Of a stretch of DNA of 32,078 nt, positions 3,182 to 10,474 are shown in pieces. The position numbers and the translations under genes were made by a program. The stretch spans positions 1 through 32,078 of the IMG/VR virus record IMGVR_UViG_3300032177_003245; one strand, written 5' to 3'. This stretch comes from a virus. Within the stretch, counting starts at the first letter, position 1; each line of letters opens with the position of its first letter. Under the pieces are notes generated by a model. That model searched no databases and was not told where the DNA came from. It was given only the letters and a program-made list of their open reading frames with translations.

Positions 3182-3510
3182 TGACCTTCCGCCCGGTAGA
3201 CCTCGACCAGGCGCTATCACATGCCAGTCCCGAGCTTCGGGCGATTCTGAGGAAGCCGACCTCGGTCGGCTTCCGGAGCGGGATGACCCGCTTCGAGCGA
3301 CTGGACATGCTGGCGTGGGGAATCCCGCAGCAGACCAACGAGATTCGGAAGATCCTCGAGGAGTGCAGTTTCGCGGGCATCGAGGCAAACTCGCCTCTCT
3401 TCGCGCTCGTCCGTGTGCTCATCCTGCTCGAGCTCACGGAGACGGTTCTCGGCATGTTTTTCCAGACGCTGCAGGCGTCGAGGGCTGTGGGCCCGGGGAG
3501 GCTCAATTGA
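3181..3510 (+). CDS. Hypothetical protein, 109 residues
   Basis: ATG at 3181 directly follows an in-frame GTG at 3178; I chose the ATG because it overlaps the upstream TGA. The protein is mainly helical, with a hydrophobic C-terminal helix (near ALVRVLILLELTETVLGMFF) that could be membrane-associated or a packing helix. No catalytic motif seen. The stop overlaps the TTG start of the next gene. Confidence 0.55.
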   Translation: MTFRPVDLDQALSHASPELRAILRKPTSVGFRSGMTRFERLDMLAWGIPQQTNEIRKILEECSFAGIEANSPLFALVRVLILLELTETVLGMFFQTLQASRAVGPGRLN

Positions 3511-3638
3511 CCGCCCGTCTCCGCGATGCCTTCTCCGAGGGTCGTCCCCTCTGGTACGTGGCCGCCTTCCTGCTCGTGATCGTCGCGCCCGCGGCGCTCT
3601 TCTGGGTCCTGCTCGTCATCGCGGGAGGCCCACGATGA
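3507..3638 (+). CDS. Short single-span membrane protein, 43 residues
   Basis: A TTG start overlaps the upstream TGA (TTGA) and is preceded by GGGGAGG. The product has a short basic/acidic N-terminus and one hydrophobic segment of about 20 residues (from WYVAAFLLVIV) ending in GGPR. It overlaps the next gene by ATGA, and this coupling on both sides is the best support for such a short ORF. Role unknown; many phages carry such small early membrane peptides. Confidence 0.5.
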   Translation: MTARLRDAFSEGRPLWYVAAFLLVIVAPAALFWVLLVIAGGPR

Positions 3639-3973
3639 TCACTCAGACCACCGTCACCCGACGCCAGATCATCACCCCCACCTCACCCACGGAGCGCCAG
3701 GTCTTCACGCAGGTATCCGTGGGGCCGGAAGGCGCCAGGCTCCTGCTACGGATCCTGGTCGCCAGTAATCCGCTGGCGCTCGCCATCGTCTCGAGCGCCC
3801 AGGCCGCCGTGCTCGAGGGACTCGCCCGGATGGTCAAGAACCAACTGCGCGAGCAGGAGCAGGCCAACCTCACCCACCCGAACGTCGATGATGCAGGGGC
3901 GGAGCCTGCCTTCGCCCCGGTCACCAGGGAGGCTCAGGGATGCGCTCCGACGACCGCAATGCCCGGATCGTGA
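3635..3973 (+). CDS. Hypothetical protein, 112 residues
   Basis: The start is an ATGA overlap with the upstream gene. The N-terminal 25 residues are Thr-rich (repeated T-x-T), followed by a helical region around RLLLRILVASNPLALAIV and a charged helix. No family recognised. Its last 34 bases overlap the next short gene in another frame. A phage early hypothetical; could associate with membrane through its central helix. Confidence 0.5.
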   Translation: MITQTTVTRRQIITPTSPTERQVFTQVSVGPEGARLLLRILVASNPLALAIVSSAQAAVLEGLARMVKNQLREQEQANLTHPNVDDAGAEPAFAPVTREAQGCAPTTAMPGS

Positions 3974-4071
3974 AGGTCACGCTCGAGATCAAGCGCCTGC
4001 AGGCGGAGAAGCGCCGGCTTCTGGCCGAGGCCGCGGAGCGGCTGCGGCCTCCGGCGCGGAAGCGGGGTTGA
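3940..4071 (+). CDS. Short basic coiled-coil peptide, 43 residues
   Basis: ATG at 3940 follows a purine-rich GGGAGGCTCAGGG stretch. The product is a single highly charged helix with heptad spacing of Leu/Ile (VTLEIKRLQAEKRRLLAEA) and a basic end (PPARKRG). It could bind nucleic acid or another phage protein. Support is a good ribosome binding site and strong third-position GC; length limits confidence. Confidence 0.45.
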   Translation: MRSDDRNARIVKVTLEIKRLQAEKRRLLAEAAERLRPPARKRG

Positions 4072-4176
4072 GATGGATGCGGCGCGCGAAAGGTTCGTGT
4101 CATCGGGGGCCACGGGCCGAGTAGCGCGCCGCACGACAGCGTGAGAAGCGATGGGCAGGTTCCCCAGGAGATCACG

Positions 4177-4506
4177 ATGATCACCCGCCAGCGCCTGCAG
4201 GCCTGGATCGAAGAGTACGACGTGCAGCTCACCCCGGAGGCGGTCGACGCCCTTCTGGCGCTCGGCCACGATGTCGCGTGCGGTCCGGACGCTCAGCGCC
4301 AGGCTCTTGCCCGGTGCGGAGCCTTGGAGGTCCTTCGCCCGCTGGCGCTCGTATTCCGGGCCGCGGTCCGCTACCGCGATTGCTGGACCCCGAACGCCAT
4401 GATGAGCGTGAGCCAGGCCTCCCGCGAGCTGACGGACGCAGTACGTCAGGCCGAGGAGATGATCAGAACTGACAGGGATGTCGATGGCCGCCGCCCACCC
4501 AACTGA
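4177..4506 (+). CDS. Hypothetical helical protein, 109 residues
   Basis: ATG at 4177 was chosen over an in-frame upstream GTG (4141) because CAGGAG lies six bases before it. The protein is mostly helical, beginning MITRQRLQAWIEEYD, and has no motif I recognise. About 105 bases before it, after the previous short gene, appear noncoding except for a possible 23-codon ORF at 4073-4144 that I do not call. It overlaps the next gene by 29 bases. Confidence 0.55.
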   Translation: MITRQRLQAWIEEYDVQLTPEAVDALLALGHDVACGPDAQRQALARCGALEVLRPLALVFRAAVRYRDCWTPNAMMSVSQASRELTDAVRQAEEMIRTDRDVDGRRPPN

Positions 4507-4813
4507 GTCGGGGTGCGTCCCGCTCGAGCGCGCGCCCGCGAACGGCGTCTACCGCGGCCGCCTCCATGTCCGCACGCTCTCGCCCGGTGTGAGCGGGGAG
4601 GACCTCCGCGCTGCCCCGCCGGCGCGCAGCCGCACGCAGGCGCCGGCACAACCGGCGAAGGACCGCCTCTGCGCTCATGCCGGCTGCAAGAACCGTCGGG
4701 TCCCGGGCGCCACGGTCTGCGCCGCGCATGCCGCCCGGCGGAAGGGCGCCAGCCGCTGTGGCCTGTGCGGTGAGCTGGGGCACACCCAGCGCACCTGCCG
4801 GAGGGCCCGCTGA
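4478..4813 (+). CDS. Two-site zinc protein with a CCHC zinc knuckle
   Basis: A 111-residue protein with a disordered basic N-terminal half and two C-terminal metal sites: C65, C70, C81, H84, and a perfect retroviral-type knuckle C-x2-C-x4-H-x4-C at C94, C97, H102, C107. CCHC knuckles of this spacing typically bind single-stranded nucleic acid. The start overlaps the upstream gene, and the stop overlaps the nuclease start by one base, so it may act with that nuclease on DNA or RNA. The motif is certain; partner and role are inference. Confidence 0.65.
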   Translation: MSMAAAHPTESGCVPLERAPANGVYRGRLHVRTLSPGVSGEDLRAAPPARSRTQAPAQPAKDRLCAHAGCKNRRVPGATVCAAHAARRKGASRCGLCGELGHTQRTCRRAR

Positions 4814-5253
4814 TGCCGACCGGGACCCCACGGCCGCTCTCGCTCCTACGTGCCGGGGGCTGGCTTGCGAAGCCCAAGGTCTACGACGGCTACCGCTACC
4901 GCAGCACCGCCGAAGCGAACTACGCCGCGCGCCTCGACCTGCTAGTGGACTCGGGGAAGATCCTCGACTGGCGGCGCGCGACCTTCTACCGGATCGAGGT
5001 CAACGGGATCTACTGCGGCCGCTACACCCCGGATTTCGTCATCGTATACCTCGACGGCAGCGAGGAGTTGATCGAGGTGAAGGGCTGGGCGGCCCGGGAC
5101 TTTCTCTTCCGCTACAACGTCTTCCGCGCCTCGAGGCCGGACCTGAAGATCACGGTCGTAGACGGCGACGGCCAGCCCTACGACCCGAACCAGCGCAGGC
5201 GCGGCAGCGACGCCGCGGTGCGCAAGCTGGTACGCGAAGGGCGGGCTCGGTGA
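4813..5253 (+). CDS. DUF1064-like PD-(D/E)XK nuclease
   Basis: A 146-residue protein matching the phage DUF1064 pattern. Catalytic-type residues are E34 in TAEAN, D74 in YTPDF, and E88/K90 in IEVKGW, the ordered E...D...ExK set of the restriction-endonuclease fold. Length is typical for the family. Proteins of this group are thought to act as phage structure-specific nucleases, possibly Holliday-junction resolution in place of RusA; that role is inferred. Starts at the last base of the upstream stop and overlaps the next gene by GTGA. Confidence 0.8.
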   Translation: MPTGTPRPLSLLRAGGWLAKPKVYDGYRYRSTAEANYAARLDLLVDSGKILDWRRATFYRIEVNGIYCGRYTPDFVIVYLDGSEELIEVKGWAARDFLFRYNVFRASRPDLKITVVDGDGQPYDPNQRRRGSDAAVRKLVREGRAR

Positions 5254-5696
5254 TCGATCTCAGCCCGCGCCAGCGACAGACCTTGGAGTGGGTGAGGGAG
5301 TTCATCCAAGACCACGGGATGCCGCCGACGGTCCGGGAGATTGGCGCCGCGTTCGGGACCAAGAGCTCGACGGTGCACCAGCAGCTGAAGGCGATCCAGC
5401 GAAAGGGCTACCTCGCCCGCCGCGATCGGAGCGCCCGATCTCTCATCCTCCAGAGGATGACGATCTGCCCGACGTGCGGTGGCATTGGCCGGATCCCGCG
5501 CTCAGACTCCAGGATCCCCTGTTACCAGTGCCATGGGCTCTACGAAGCTGAGCGCCGGCCCAGCCCGAACCGCAGAAACTTCTGCCCCTCCTGTCGTGAA
5601 CGCGGAATTCCCGTGGCCTACGCCAAGGCGGATCTCCTGGAGCGCCGGCGGGAGGACATCCTCGAGACCCTGCTCATCCGCCCGAGGCAGCCATGA
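5250..5696 (+). CDS. LexA-type winged helix joined to CxxC zinc fingers
   Basis: A 148-residue protein, GTG start overlapping the upstream TGA. Residues 4-66 closely follow the LexA DNA-binding domain (LSPRQRQTL..., PPTVREIGAAFG..SSTVHQQLKA). LexA would continue with an autoproteolytic S24 peptidase domain. Here the chain instead carries three CxxC pairs (C73/C76, C91/C94, C112/C115), the first two resembling DnaJ-type Cys-rich fingers, then a charged helix. It can therefore bind DNA but cannot self-cleave. It may regulate early phage genes or occupy host SOS operators; this is inference. Confidence 0.75.
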   Translation: MIDLSPRQRQTLEWVREFIQDHGMPPTVREIGAAFGTKSSTVHQQLKAIQRKGYLARRDRSARSLILQRMTICPTCGGIGRIPRSDSRIPCYQCHGLYEAERRPSPNRRNFCPSCRERGIPVAYAKADLLERRREDILETLLIRPRQP

Positions 5697-5712
5697 GCCA
5701 GGAGGCCGCCTG

Positions 5713-6036
5713 ATGCCTGCCTGTGCGTCTCGTCGACGGGCGCTCAGCCTTGCCAGCCGTTGCTGCGGCGCGCTCAGCGCGTGGGGCTTCCGCGGCGTGA
5801 TCGCCCAGCGGCCGAGCCGGGATCGAGAGCCCTGGGGTGCCGGGATCGCCGTCGTCATCGCCCTGGTCCACTGCCGGGTGCTCGTCATCGAGTGCCGGCC
5901 TGGGCGCTCCAACCGCCGCAAGGCCCTCTCGGACTTCCTGCGCCAGGCCCTGCGGGAGGGCCACCAGTCTTTTGCGGTCCGCAACGCCGAAGAGCTCGAG
6001 CTCGTGATGTCCGCGCGCGGCTACATCGCGCCGTAG
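5713..6036 (+). CDS. VRR-NUC-like protein with altered catalytic residues
   Basis: A 107-residue basic protein. The C-terminal 55 residues follow the VRR-NUC layout: a strand ending VLVIECRPG, a helix, G-H-x-x-F-A-V-R strand, then NAEELELVM. The usual ExK is replaced by ECR and the following Gln by Lys, so nuclease activity is doubtful unless other residues compensate. The ATG lies in TGATG and is preceded by AGGAGG. It closes the early nuclease/regulator cluster. Alternative: a structural phage hypothetical that resembles VRR-NUC by chance. Confidence 0.45.
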   Translation: MPACASRRRALSLASRCCGALSAWGFRGVIAQRPSRDREPWGAGIAVVIALVHCRVLVIECRPGRSNRRKALSDFLRQALREGHQSFAVRNAEELELVMSARGYIAP

Positions 6037-6047
6037 CCGACAGATCA

Positions 6048-6084
6048 GGGGGAAGGCATGTCTAACCGCCACATCGACGCCGCC
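6048..6084 (+). repeat. Duplicated translation-start region, copy 1
   Basis: Thirty-seven bases containing GGGGGAAGGC and the first nine codons after ATG (MSNRHIDAA) match 6311-6347 at 32 of 37 positions. Copy 2 is the start of the replication initiator gene. Confidence 0.8.
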
Positions 6085-6195
6085 TGGCAAGTGGATCCGC
6101 TGAGTGTCGACCTCAATGCGAAGGCCGGCGGCTCATCGCCGCCGGCCACGCAGTCGGCAAGGTCATCACGGGGACAGGCGGGGAACCGTGGCTAG
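6058..6195 (+). CDS. Short ORF duplicating the initiator N-terminus, 45 residues
   Basis: Starts MSNRHIDAAWQ, nearly the same as the replication initiator start MSNRHINATLE at 6321, and shares the upstream bases. After nine residues it diverges into a low-complexity Ala/Ser/Gly sequence. A strong 10-bp hairpin sits inside it at 6123-6147. It may be a remnant of a duplicated gene start, or a translated leader that controls the initiator. I doubt that the peptide itself has a function. Confidence 0.4.
   Translation: MSNRHIDAAWQVDPLSVDLNAKAGGSSPPATQSARSSRGQAGNRG
6123..6147 (+). promoter_or_regulatory. Strong stem-loop upstream of the replication initiator
   Basis: A perfect 10-bp stem (GGCCGGCGGC / GCCGCCGGCC) with loop TCATC. 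No T-tract follows, so it is not a standard terminator. Its place in a leader ORF before the initiator suggests attenuation or mRNA stability control. Confidence 0.5.
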
Positions 6196-6310
6196 CGATA
6201 GGGCCCCTACCGGGCATGACCACCACGGGTCGGATGACGCCGCCCTCACACCGGGCCGCGCTAGGCGCGGTCCGCATGTCGACAGCCGGACCGTACTCCT
6301 TCGCAGGGAT

Positions 6311-6347
6311 GGGGGCAAGCATGTCTAACCGGCACATCAACGCCACC
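6311..6347 (+). repeat. Duplicated translation-start region, copy 2
   Basis: Matches 6048-6084 at 32 of 37 positions and contains the chosen start of the replication initiator. The shared upstream bases support ATG 6321 over the in-frame ATG at 6216. Confidence 0.8.
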
Positions 6348-7139
6348 CTGGAGCTGAAGCTGGCGCCACGCCAGAAGCTCCTCCTCCTCGTGCTGGCGAA
6401 CCATGCCTGCGATGACTGCGGGCTGGCCTGGCCGGGAGTCTCCTGCCTGGCCCGGGAGACGGGACTGGGCGCCACGTCGCTCCGGGAGGACCTCCAGGCG
6501 CTCACAGACGCTGGCCTGCTCGAGATCCGGCGCTACCCCAGGGGAGGAGCTGGGAGGGCGACCGAGTACATCGTGCTGGGCAGCCTCATCGAGTTGGGCC
6601 ACGCGCCGTGCGCAACCTGCGCCGAGAACCTCGCCGCTCCCCGTCCGCGAAGAACCCACCACACGGGTGATGGGAAAGGCTCGCGGCTACCCACCACCCG
6701 GGTGGTGGGTTCGCCTGTGGAGAACGCCGGAGTTATCCACATACCCACCGGAAAAGGGCCGTCAACCCACCACCCGGGTGGTGACCAACCCTCAGTAGAA
6801 CCAGAACCCACAGCGCGCGCGCACACGCGCACGCGCGAGAGGCAGGCGGTCGCGGCTCCGCCGCACGCTCGGAGCCGCCCACCCACCGCACCGGCCTCGG
6901 TCGGCGACACGCTCCGCAGCCTCTTGCCGGGCCTCACCGTCAGCGGAGCGCTGGATGCGATCCCCATCGGTCCCGCGGTCGCCGCAACCCCCGCCGACAG
7001 GGAAGAACCGCAAGGCGCGCGCCAGCACCAGGCCGGCGCCGGTGGCTGTCGCAGTCCGGGTGACCCTCCAGGCCGCGGGGAGACGGGCGAGACGATGGCG
7101 TGGGCAGCGAGCGCACCGAAGCGGGAGGGAGGGACATGA
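6321..7139 (+). CDS. Helix-turn-helix phage replication initiator (lambda O-like role)
   Basis: A 272-residue protein. Residues 14-85 form a winged helix of the HTH_36 type seen at the N-terminus of phage replication proteins (APRQKLLLLVLANHA, WPGVSCLARETGLG, SLREDLQALTDAGLLE, GRATEYIV). The rest is low-complexity, Pro/Ala/Arg-rich and probably disordered. Repeated palindromes and DnaA boxes lie inside the gene, as the lambda origin lies inside O, which supports an initiator role. Start chosen from the duplicated start region. No helicase-loader or helicase gene follows where lambda P would be. The stop overlaps the next ATG. Confidence 0.7.
   Translation: MSNRHINATLELKLAPRQKLLLLVLANHACDDCGLAWPGVSCLARETGLGATSLREDLQALTDAGLLEIRRYPRGGAGRATEYIVLGSLIELGHAPCATCAENLAAPRPRRTHHTGDGKGSRLPTTRVVGSPVENAGVIHIPTGKGPSTHHPGGDQPSVEPEPTARAHTRTRERQAVAAPPHARSRPPTAPASVGDTLRSLLPGLTVSGALDAIPIGPAVAATPADREEPQGARQHQAGAGGCRSPGDPPGRGETGETMAWAASAPKREGGT
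6716..6741 (+). promoter_or_regulatory. Inverted pair of DnaA boxes
   Basis: TTATCCACA on the + strand (6733-6741) equals the high-affinity DnaA consensus; TTCTCCACA on the - strand (6716-6724) differs at one base. They face each other across 8 bases between iterons 2 and 3. Confidence 0.6.
6813..6837. repeat. Alternating purine-pyrimidine tract
   Basis: Twenty-five bases of alternating GC/AC dinucleotides within the initiator gene, next to the candidate origin. Such tracts can form Z-DNA under negative supercoiling. In protein they encode an Arg/Thr/His-rich linker. Confidence 0.6.
6852..6878 (+). repeat. Inverted repeat beside the candidate origin
   Basis: GCGGCTCCG and CGGAGCCGC form a perfect 9-bp stem around a 9-base spacer, between the alternating tract and the last ACCCACC half-site. 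Could be part of the origin or simply GC-rich coding sequence. Confidence 0.4.
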
Positions 7140-7279
7140 TCGCGATCCTGGTCGCCACGGTCTTCTGCTTCACCACGCCCGCCTTCAACGCGGCGCCCGA
7201 CTCCTGCGGCCCCGGGATCGTTCCGCTCGGCGATCTCGCCCTCGTGCGGCTGTACGGGCAGCCACAGGGGGAGCGGTGA
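7136..7279 (+). CDS. Small secreted or membrane peptide, 47 residues
   Basis: The ATG overlaps the initiator stop (ATGA) and follows GGGAGGGAGGG. The product begins MIAILVATVFCFTTPAFNAAP, resembling a short signal peptide with a possible cleavage near AFNAA, and ends in a short polar tail. Unknown function. After it, 179 bases up to the next chosen start hold no gene I can support. Confidence 0.4.
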   Translation: MIAILVATVFCFTTPAFNAAPDSCGPGIVPLGDLALVRLYGQPQGER

Positions 7280-7458
7280 CGCGTTCCTCGCCAAGCATGG
7301 CGCCGGCGCACCTAGCGCGCGCGACGTCCATTGACGTGCGTCGGCTCCTGAGCCTCTGGGTCGGTATTTGGCTCTTCGGGGGCAGGGGGAACTGTGGTAA
7401 TCCTAGATGGACTCCACGATGCCCTGACGCCGTCCCTCTCTCAACAGGGGTGAAGAGA

Positions 7459-8304: not shown

Positions 8305-8741
8305 GGCTCGATCTAGGGCGACTGAACCGGCCCTGGATAGAACGTGTCGGCCAGGTTGAATTGTCGGTCCTGCCTTCTCCCTTTGACGTCCCGGAGGCAG
8401 TGAGATTCGCGGTCCAGCGCAGAGCCTGGTGGGGCCACGACCGGCAGGTCATCGAATTTGCATACATCGGCAACGAGCCACTCCGGGAGGTGCGTCTCAG
8501 CGGCGGGGTTGAGTTCCTGCTCGGGCGTTTCAGCGGCAGGCTTCATCAGATCGCCTTCGATCCAGAGGATGTACCTGCGTGGGCGCGGTCATCACCGGTC
8601 AACGCCCTGCAGTTCGTGGCGAGTACTATCCACTCTCTGGTCGAGACATCACCTCGCCCACGCCGTTCACGGAACTACCAGCTCGCCCAAGAAGCCCTAC
8701 AGATGCAAGGCGATCAAGTGTTCAGCGCCTTCGTAGGCTAG
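8289..8741 (+). CDS. Small partner protein of the GAF-like membrane protein
   Basis: A 150-residue soluble protein I do not recognise. Its ATG lies 16 bases inside the upstream gene, so the two are translationally coupled. It has an acidic-aromatic N-terminal half with predicted strands, a Gly/Arg patch (GGVEFLLGRFSGRL) and a helical C-terminus. Base composition matches the upstream gene rather than the phage. Likely acts with the two-TM protein as an accessory pair; defence or immunity is only a possibility. Confidence 0.55.
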   Translation: MGDWIGLDLGRLNRPWIERVGQVELSVLPSPFDVPEAVRFAVQRRAWWGHDRQVIEFAYIGNEPLREVRLSGGVEFLLGRFSGRLHQIAFDPEDVPAWARSSPVNALQFVASTIHSLVETSPRPRRSRNYQLAQEALQMQGDQVFSAFVG

Positions 8742-8785
8742 GGACGCTGCCTCGCCCAGAACTTGCCACAAGGGAGGGAGCCGCG

Positions 8786-10474
8786 ATGCCCGCCGAGAAC
8801 GTGCTCTACTACGGTGACAACCTCGACGTCCTGCGCCGGCACGTGAAGGACGAGACGGTGGATCTCGTGTACCTGGACCCGCCGTTCAATTCCAACGCCA
8901 GCTACAACGTCCTGTTCGCGGAGCGGCCGGGCACGAAGTCCGCTGCGCAGATCCATGCCTTCGAGGACACGTGGCACTGGGACCAGGGCGCGGCGGCGGC
9001 ATGCCAGGAGATCATCGAGCAAGGCGGGCGCGTCTCCGAGGCTATGCATGCGTTCCGCACCTTCCTCGGCGAATCGGACATGATGGCCTACCTGGCGATG
9101 ATGGCGCCTCGCCTAGTCGAGCTGCGTCGCGTCCTCACGGCCACCGGCAGCCTCTACCTGCACTGCGACCCGACGGCGAGCCACTACCTGAAGATGCTCA
9201 TGGACGCGATCTTCAAGCCGCAGAACTTCAGGGCCGAGATCATCTGGAAGCGCAGCAGTGCGCACAGCGACACCAAGCAGGGCCGCAAGCAGCACGGCCG
9301 CATCCACGACGTCCTGCTCTTCTACACGAAGGGGGACGATTGGACGTGGAATCCGCAGTACACGACCTACGATCCGGAGTATGTCGAGCAGTTCTACCGG
9401 CACGAGGAGCCGGGGACTGGCCGCCTGTACCGGCTCGGCGATCTCACGGGGCCCGGTGGAGCGGCGAAGGGGAACCCGAACTACGAAGTCATGGGCGTGA
9501 CCCGCTACTGGCGGTTCAGCAAGGCGAAGATGGAGCAGCTCATCCGCGAGGGTCGCGTCATTCAGACGAACCCCGGCGCGGTCCCGGCCTACAAGCGATA
9601 CCTCGACGAAATGTCGGGCGTTCCGCTGCAGGACATGTGGACCGATCTCAGACCCATCGGCGCCCAGGCCGCCGAGCGCCTCGGCTACCCGACCCAGAAG
9701 CCCGAATCGCTCCTGGAGCGGATCATCCTCACGAGCAGCAATGAGGGCGACCTGGTCCTGGACCCGTTCTGCGGCTGCGGGACGACCATCGCTGTGGCCC
9801 AGCGGCTGAAGCGTCACTGGATCGGGGTGGACGTCACCCATCTCGCCGTGGGGCTCATGAAGGCACGTCTGACGGACGCCTTCGGAGGTCGTGCGGAGTA
9901 CCAGGTGATCGGGGAACCCACGGATCTGGCCGGCGCTGAACATCTGGCGGCCGAGGACAAGTTCCAATTTGAGTGCTGGGCGCTCGGCCTTGTGGGGGCC
10001 CGACATTCCGAGCACAAGAAGGGCGCCGATCGCGGGATCGATGGGCGTCTCCTCTTCCATGACGAGGGCTCCGCCGGAGGCACAAAGCAGGTCATCCTCT
10101 CTGTGAAGGGGGGTGGCACAAGCTCGCCGCACGTCCGCGATCTTGTTGGCGTGCTTGATCGAGAGAAGGCGCAGATCGGCGTGCTCCTCAGCCTGCACGA
10201 GCCGACGCGTGACATGCGCAAGGAGGCCGCGACCGCGGGCTTCTACCGCTCGCCTTACACAGACCGGAACCACCCACGCGTCCAGCTGCTCACGATCAAG
10301 GAGTTGCTCGAGGGGAAAGGAATCGACTACCCGGGGCAGGCTTCCAACGTGACGCTCAAGCGCGCGCCGGCGGTCCGCTCTCAAGGCGCGGAGAACCTCA
10401 CGCTCTTCGGCTCGGGATCTGCCCCATCGCATGCCGGCTCCTCGAAGAAGCCCCCCAGGCGGACCAAGCGCTGA
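8786..10474 (+). CDS. Beta-class DNA methyltransferase fused to Mrr-like endonuclease domain
   Basis: A 562-residue protein. The N-terminal part is an amino (N4-cytosine or N6-adenine) methyltransferase with permuted order: DPPF at 31-34, a central variable target-recognition region (about 150-285), YPTQKP at 301-306 and the AdoMet motif DPFCGCGTT at 326-334. Residues 390-520 look like an Mrr-type PD-(D/E)XK domain: GADRGIDGRLLF at 413-424 and LSVKGG at 438-443, then an RDLVGVLDRE helix. The protein could modify and cut in one chain, or the nuclease fold may be structural. ATG 8786 has GGGAGGGAG upstream. No separate specificity subunit is seen. Confidence 0.85.
   Translation: MPAENVLYYGDNLDVLRRHVKDETVDLVYLDPPFNSNASYNVLFAERPGTKSAAQIHAFEDTWHWDQGAAAACQEIIEQGGRVSEAMHAFRTFLGESDMMAYLAMMAPRLVELRRVLTATGSLYLHCDPTASHYLKMLMDAIFKPQNFRAEIIWKRSSAHSDTKQGRKQHGRIHDVLLFYTKGDDWTWNPQYTTYDPEYVEQFYRHEEPGTGRLYRLGDLTGPGGAAKGNPNYEVMGVTRYWRFSKAKMEQLIREGRVIQTNPGAVPAYKRYLDEMSGVPLQDMWTDLRPIGAQAAERLGYPTQKPESLLERIILTSSNEGDLVLDPFCGCGTTIAVAQRLKRHWIGVDVTHLAVGLMKARLTDAFGGRAEYQVIGEPTDLAGAEHLAAEDKFQFECWALGLVGARHSEHKKGADRGIDGRLLFHDEGSAGGTKQVILSVKGGGTSSPHVRDLVGVLDREKAQIGVLLSLHEPTRDMRKEAATAGFYRSPYTDRNHPRVQLLTIKELLEGKGIDYPGQASNVTLKRAPAVRSQGAENLTLFGSGSAPSHAGSSKKPPRRTKR

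What the first reader, a model, noticed from the sequence alone, without database searches (positions are those of the whole stretch)
6654..6887. Replication origin buried in the initiator gene
Three palindromic iterons, two ACCCACC half-sites, a perfect DnaA box (6733-6741) and an inverted near-perfect one (6716-6724) lie inside the coding sequence of the helix-turn-helix protein. This is the lambda O/ori arrangement in an unrelated, GC-rich phage. The iterons are exact palindromes around CCCGGG, unlike the longer lambda iterons. The disordered C-terminal part of the protein may exist mainly as a carrier of the origin.
Basis: partly seen in the sequence, partly recalled or inferred. Interest (0 to 1): 0.75.

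Follow-up and report, generated by a model that had tools for sequence, protein, structure and literature searches.

The report
Phage replication origin inside initiator gene
This bacterial virus most likely hides its DNA-copying start site inside the gene for the protein that starts the copying, an arrangement long known from phage lambda; the uncommon detail is a conserved landing site for the host's own starter protein, DnaA, inside that same site.

Summary
The gene at 6321-7139 encodes a winged-HTH (HTH_36) protein matching PHROG 'replication initiation/O-like' families. Just 3' of its HTH codons lie two perfect palindromes (22 and 16 bp), one imperfect copy, two ACCCACC half-sites and the only TTATCCACA in the 32-kb record.

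Two tests support an intragenic origin. (1) A relative with 78% identical HTH (L058, binned as Ca. Eisenbacteria) keeps the repeat cores and a TTGTCCACA box: 4/69 bases changed, against 19/68 in the spacers (p=5e-4). (2) Among 25 HTH_36/O-like phage initiator genes (this one included), 22 carry at least 3 clustered repeats, nearly always just 3' of the HTH codons, with unrelated sequences, against 6/84 control ORFs. Copies are often read in different frames, so selection is on the DNA.

This is the known lambda/P22/SPP1 plan. What differs: a DnaA box, present in 3/3 clade members and in none of the other 24 initiators; no pronounced AT-rich element; no P, DnaB or DnaC gene found in the record. 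The 'carrier' idea fits the disordered middle of the protein, not the distal tail. Function is inferred; nothing was tested biochemically.

The parts
6321..7139 (+). Replication-initiator-like gene: N-terminal winged HTH (HTH_36), disordered middle, conserved short tail. The longest ORF starts at 6216; 6321 ATG is preferred because L058 starts there.
   Evidence: PF13730 E=9e-7 over cut-off; PHROG replication initiation / O-like families E=2e-11 to 8e-7; relative L058 starts at the equivalent ATG
6321..6587 (+). HTH-coding segment
   Evidence: predicted helices and beta wing; differences to L058 by codon position 25/8/30
6654..6675 (.). Iteron 1, imperfect palindrome ACCCACCACACGGGTGATGGGA
   Evidence: 1 difference in L058
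6689..6710 (.). Iteron 2, perfect 22-bp palindrome
   Evidence: 2 differences in L058, both in the outer arm
6716..6724 (-). One-mismatch DnaA-box-like site TTCTCCACA; not conserved in L058, probably not functional
6733..6741 (+). DnaA box TTATCCACA; TTGTCCACA in L058; a perfect TTATCCACA is present in the same gene of L060
6743..6749 (+). Half-site ACCCACC, conserved in L058
6765..6783 (.). Iteron 3, ACC plus perfect 16-bp palindrome
   Evidence: 1 difference in L058
6813..6837 (.). 25-nt alternating purine-pyrimidine tract GCGCGCGCGCACACGCGCACGCGCG, 27 nt in L058; possible helix-destabilising or Z-prone element
   Evidence: next longest in window 13; 1 of 300 simulations reaches 25
6881..6887 (+). 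Half-site ACCCACC, conserved in L058
6887..7015 (+). Distal tail with coding-like substitutions (2/1/5 by codon position); possible partner-binding segment
6058..6093 (+). Stub of a second initiator start (MSNRHIDAAWQV), matching L058's start rather than the intact gene; suggests that the HTH allele was replaced by recombination

Best explanation
6654-6887 is the phage's theta-type replication origin, carried inside its own initiator gene. Shown: an array of palindromic repeats just 3' of the HTH codons of an O-like initiator, conserved as DNA, with one conserved DnaA box. Inferred: dimers of the HTH protein bind the palindromes and half-sites and form an O-some-like complex. Host DnaA binds the box in the gap between iterons 2 and 3 and helps open the DNA and/or recruit host DnaB. 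The alternating purine-pyrimidine tract or the DnaA-box segment (44% AT at most) serves as the unwinding element in place of a lambda-like AT-rich block. Placing sites and protein in one gene keeps initiator and origin matched when modules recombine.
For: HTH_36 and PHROG replication-initiation/O-like matches. Iterons start 333 bp into the gene; annotated lambda iterons start 348 bp into O. 22 of 25 HTH_36/O-like initiators have at least 3 clustered 14-mers, against 6 of 84 control ORFs (Fisher 1e-14; at least 4 copies: 14/25 v 0/84). Copies stand in different reading frames here (0, 2, 0, 2) and in many relatives. Against L058, iteron cores plus box changed at 4/69 bases and spacers at 19/68, p=5e-4. 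Third-position bias is lost over 6654-6886 (12/13/6 differences by codon position) but not in the HTH (25/8/30), p=0.012. GC3 falls from 0.88 to 0.56-0.71 over 6624-6827. Residues 88-191 are predicted disordered. DnaA box in 3/3 clade members; the same box occurs in a pair just upstream of a dnaA-like gene in a genome of L058's phylum.
Against: No binding or replication data. Iteron spacing (35 and 76 bp) is wider and less regular than the 20-24 bp usual in relatives. No strong AT-rich DUE. No clear GC-skew switch. The DnaA role rests on three genomes, two of them closely related. The record may be a fragment, so a missing P, DnaB or DnaC gene is weak evidence. The disorder prediction comes from a single-sequence model. 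The spacer test rests on one relative.
Confidence: 0.85

Rival explanations
1. The palindromes are operators for autoregulation or repression (by the HTH protein itself or by the upstream LexA-like protein) and are not an origin.
For: Perfect dyads are typical of dimeric repressors; a LexA-type DNA-binding domain is encoded just upstream.
Against: They lie over 330 bp inside the gene, occur nowhere else in 32 kb, including upstream of genes, and match the in-gene array position of 22/25 initiators; a DnaA box sits among them. Initiators may also autoregulate, so the two are not exclusive.
Confidence: 0.07
2. Low-complexity Pro/His/Gly-rich coding sequence with GC-rich codon bias gives repeats by chance or through protein-level selection.
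For: The middle of the protein is low-complexity and predicted disordered.
Against: The same DNA is read in different frames (THHTG, PTTRVVG, THHPGG); synonymous shuffles of this gene reach at most 3 copies, mean 2.25, against 4 observed; third positions are not the fast ones.
Confidence: 0.03
3. Origin as proposed, but the DnaA box is incidental: initiation works with HTH protein plus a phage or host helicase loader alone, as in lambda.
For: None of the other 24 surveyed initiator genes has a TTRTCCACA box, so the mechanism does not generally need one; only three genomes show it here.
Against: Expected 2.6e-4 in this segment; retained as TTGTCCACA in L058; independent perfect box in L060, where iteron sequence and tail have changed; no P, DnaB_C or DnaC-like gene found in the record.
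Confidence: 0.35
4. The palindromes act as RNA hairpins (attenuator or terminator) in the initiator mRNA.
For: Long perfect inverted repeats can form stems.
Against: The palindromes have no loop and no T-run follows them; three copies plus half-sites fit protein sites better. No RNA-family or folding test was run on them.
Confidence: 0.03

Closest known systems
Phage lambda ori / O gene (PF04492 Phage_rep_O)
   Same: Iterons in the middle of the initiator gene, at nearly the same distance from the start codon (348 v 333 bp); O binds four iterons (PMC7466680, PMC8022706).
   Different: Protein does not match Phage_rep_O in Pfam; iteron sequence unrelated; no flanking AT-rich block; no lambda P gene found; DnaA box present.
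P22 / phage L gene 18 and enterobacterial O-like initiators (SfII, LLS, mEp554 and others)
   Same: In-gene iterons; [quoted passage not shown] the survey here extends this to HTH_36/O-like initiators of many hosts.
   Different: Only distant HTH similarity; iterons mostly 20-24 bp apart; no DnaA box in the surveyed genes.
SPP1 oriL within gene 38
   Same: Direct repeats bound by the origin-binding protein lie within its own gene (PMC6316719).
   Different: Protein family not compared; SPP1 has an AT-rich DUE, a second origin and its own helicase loader and DnaB-type helicase (PMC6316719).
Iteron plasmids with DnaA boxes (pSC101, P1, R6K, RK2; from general knowledge)
   Same: Iterons plus DnaA box, suggesting joint use of Rep and host DnaA.
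   Different: There the iterons usually lie outside the rep gene and the Rep protein is of another family; no plasmid Rep family matched here.

Membership tests
HTH_36/O-like phage initiators with intragenic iterons | HTH_36 or PHROG O-like N-terminal domain | tested here: met
   PF13730 29 bits over cut-off 25; PHROG 1032, 8540, 391
HTH_36/O-like phage initiators with intragenic iterons | At least 3 clustered repeats just 3' of the HTH codons | tested here: met
   4 copies at +333, +368, +444, +560 with HTH end at +267
HTH_36/O-like phage initiators with intragenic iterons | Protein binds the repeats and starts replication there | not testable with these tools
   needs footprinting and origin cloning
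Lambda O family (PF04492) | Match to Phage_rep_O | tested here: not met
   Pfam scan gives only HTH_36 at E<=0.001
Lambda O family (PF04492) | Origin iterons inside the initiator gene | tested here: met
Lambda O family (PF04492) | Adjacent P-type helicase loader | tested here: not met
   no PF06992, PF01695 or PF03796 match in the record; record may be a fragment
Lambda O family (PF04492) | AT-rich unwinding region beside the iterons | tested here: not met
   local 48-nt maximum 44% AT, at 6708; 58% AT is reached elsewhere in the record
DnaA-assisted iteron origin | DnaA box among iterons, conserved in the clade | tested here: met
   window, L058, L060
DnaA-assisted iteron origin | DnaA required for initiation | not testable with these tools
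   needs binding and origin assays

The most novel reading that the evidence does not exclude
A hybrid origin class: a lambda-type in-gene iteron origin in which a built-in host DnaA box, and perhaps a Z-prone alternating purine-pyrimidine tract, replace the phage helicase loader and the AT-rich unwinding block. Iteron sequence and HTH diverge together within the clade, while the DnaA box is kept.
Probability: 0.35. Interest if true: 0.55.

Novelty: new variant of a known kind. Interest (0 to 1): 0.4.

Why it matters
It gives a sequence rule for predicting phage origins without experiment: look just 3' of the HTH codons of an HTH_36/O-like gene. It puts a predicted origin on a phage from a poorly sampled group, and it suggests that some in-gene origins recruit host DnaA directly, which can be tested with silent mutations.

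Tried and rejected
Full-length protein searches in viral contigs and phage records, and the portal protein in viral contigs, found no close relatives; HTH-only genome contigs and phylum searches did. A scan for paired CACCCGGGTG palindromes in viral contigs gave 24 loci, none with an ORF matching the HTH, so the exact motif is not a general marker. HTH_36 (PF13730) hits in 47 genomes of L058's phylum gave no further relative carrying an array. GC skew was uninformative. Structure: mean pLDDT 45, PDB matches to generic winged helices, with DnaD N-domain at E=0.02; too weak to use beyond 'winged HTH'. The inverted DnaA box was rejected on conservation. Phage Kromp (L005) was dropped from the survey: its HTH lies at the C-terminus, so nothing follows it. 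Locus L009 was dropped because its ORF could not be read as an initiator. Survey exceptions: V039C (2 copies), Sansa (2 copies, no clear family) and SI8 (none).

Full report
Observation. Sequence and repeat scans confirm the elements: a perfect 22-bp palindrome at 6689-6710 (longest in the record), a perfect 16-bp one at 6768-6783, an imperfect copy at 6654, half-sites at 6743 and 6881, and the only perfect DnaA box of the record at 6733. The motif occurs nowhere else in the 32 kb. G000 is a virus record of 32,078 bases, possibly a fragment.

The gene. ORF 6216-7139, most likely starting at 6321, carries an HTH_36 domain and matches several PHROG replication-initiation/O-like families. A single-sequence structure prediction shows helices and a beta wing in the first 87 residues and low confidence over residues 88-191, that is nt 6582-6893, which covers the array. 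The usual third-position GC bias (0.88 in the HTH segment) falls to 0.56-0.71 over 6624-6827.

Family survey. From tblastn searches for HTH relatives, 24 other initiator genes were taken from phages of Vibrio, Rhodobacter, Serratia, Klebsiella, Escherichia, Shigella, Rhizobium, Erwinia, Halomonas, Caulobacter, Acinetobacter, Parageobacillus, Pseudomonas, Stenotrophomonas and others. In 22 of 25 genes (window included) at least three 14-mers (up to 2 mismatches, within 250 bp) cluster, nearly always directly 3' of the HTH codons and usually 20-24 bp apart; control ORFs of the same loci reach this in 6 of 84 cases, and 4 or more copies occur in 14/25 v 0/84. The sequences are unrelated between most phages; about half show significant dyad symmetry. 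In many genes the copies fall in different reading frames, so the DNA, not the peptide, is repeated. Lambda's annotated iterons lie at the equivalent place in O. This is the pattern described for lambda, P22 and L (PMC8022706), Stx phages (PMC7466680) and SPP1 oriL (PMC6316719). Some sampled genes are closely related, so the 25 are not fully independent.

Close relatives. HTH-only searching found L058, a 4.3-kb contig of a MAG titled Candidatus Eisenbacteria, collinear with window 3193-7305 at 78-88% DNA identity, so a relative of this phage; the binning may be wrong. It keeps the three iterons, adds a fourth upstream, has TTGTCCACA for TTATCCACA, and a 27-nt alternating tract for the 25-nt one. 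Iteron cores plus box differ at 4/69 bases, spacers at 19/68 (p=5e-4). Codon-position counts are 25/8/30 in the HTH but 12/13/6 over 6654-6886 (p=0.012). A second relative, L060 (53% HTH identity, another genome of the same phylum), has a different recognition helix, different repeats (three GGCGACCCCTTTGC copies, one inverted) and a perfect TTATCCACA just after the HTH. So repeat and HTH diverge together while the DnaA box stays. None of the 24 other survey genes has such a box. In a third genome of that phylum two TTATCCACA copies sit just upstream of an ORF read here as DnaA, so the box is plausible for such hosts; the phage's own host is not established.

Mechanism. Best reading: dimers of the HTH protein assemble on the palindromes; DnaA binds the box in the gap between iterons 2 and 3 (76 bp start to start) and assists opening and helicase recruitment. 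Shown: anatomy and DNA-level conservation. Inferred: binding, opening, helicase loading. No lambda P, DnaB or DnaC-like gene was found in the record, consistent with use of the host pathway, but the record may be incomplete.

Recombination trace. At 6058 the window holds a stub (MSNRHIDAAWQV) identical to the start of L058's gene, followed by about 220 bp absent from L058 and a second start with an HTH segment only 78% identical in DNA, while flanks are 88%. This looks like replacement of the HTH segment by another allele; the recognition helix (GATSLREDLQALTD v GATTLREDLQALTD) and the iteron cores stayed matched.

Verdict. A conserved in-gene origin of a known kind is the best-supported reading, with a DnaA-box variant worth testing; interest moderate.

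Noticed in passing
6058-6320: Truncated duplicate start of the initiator gene (MSNRHIDAAWQV...), matching the relative L058 better than the intact downstream gene; likely trace of an HTH-allele swap.
   Followed up: partly
6813-6837: 25-nt alternating purine-pyrimidine tract beside the array; 27 nt in L058, where a CG to TA double change keeps the alternation. Possible unwinding or Z-DNA element.
   Followed up: partly
8579-10474: 631-aa protein with an N6/N4 DNA methylase domain and a C-terminal Mrr-like/restriction-endonuclease-like domain: methylase-nuclease fusion in a phage early region.
   Followed up: no
2321-2340: Perfect 20-bp palindrome GCTCCTTCGCGCGAAGGAGC 11 bp after the end of the SNF2-type helicase ORF; could be a terminator or a binding site.
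   Followed up: no
about 5250-5696: LexA-type DNA-binding domain without a recognised peptidase domain, encoded just upstream of the initiator region.
   Followed up: no
L020:2184-2224 and 4137-4174: Pairs of CCCACCCGGGTGGG palindromes in an AT-rich viral contig, with a TTATCCACA in the stretch between the two pairs; no HTH_36-like ORF found there. Possibly terminators or another origin type.
   Followed up: no
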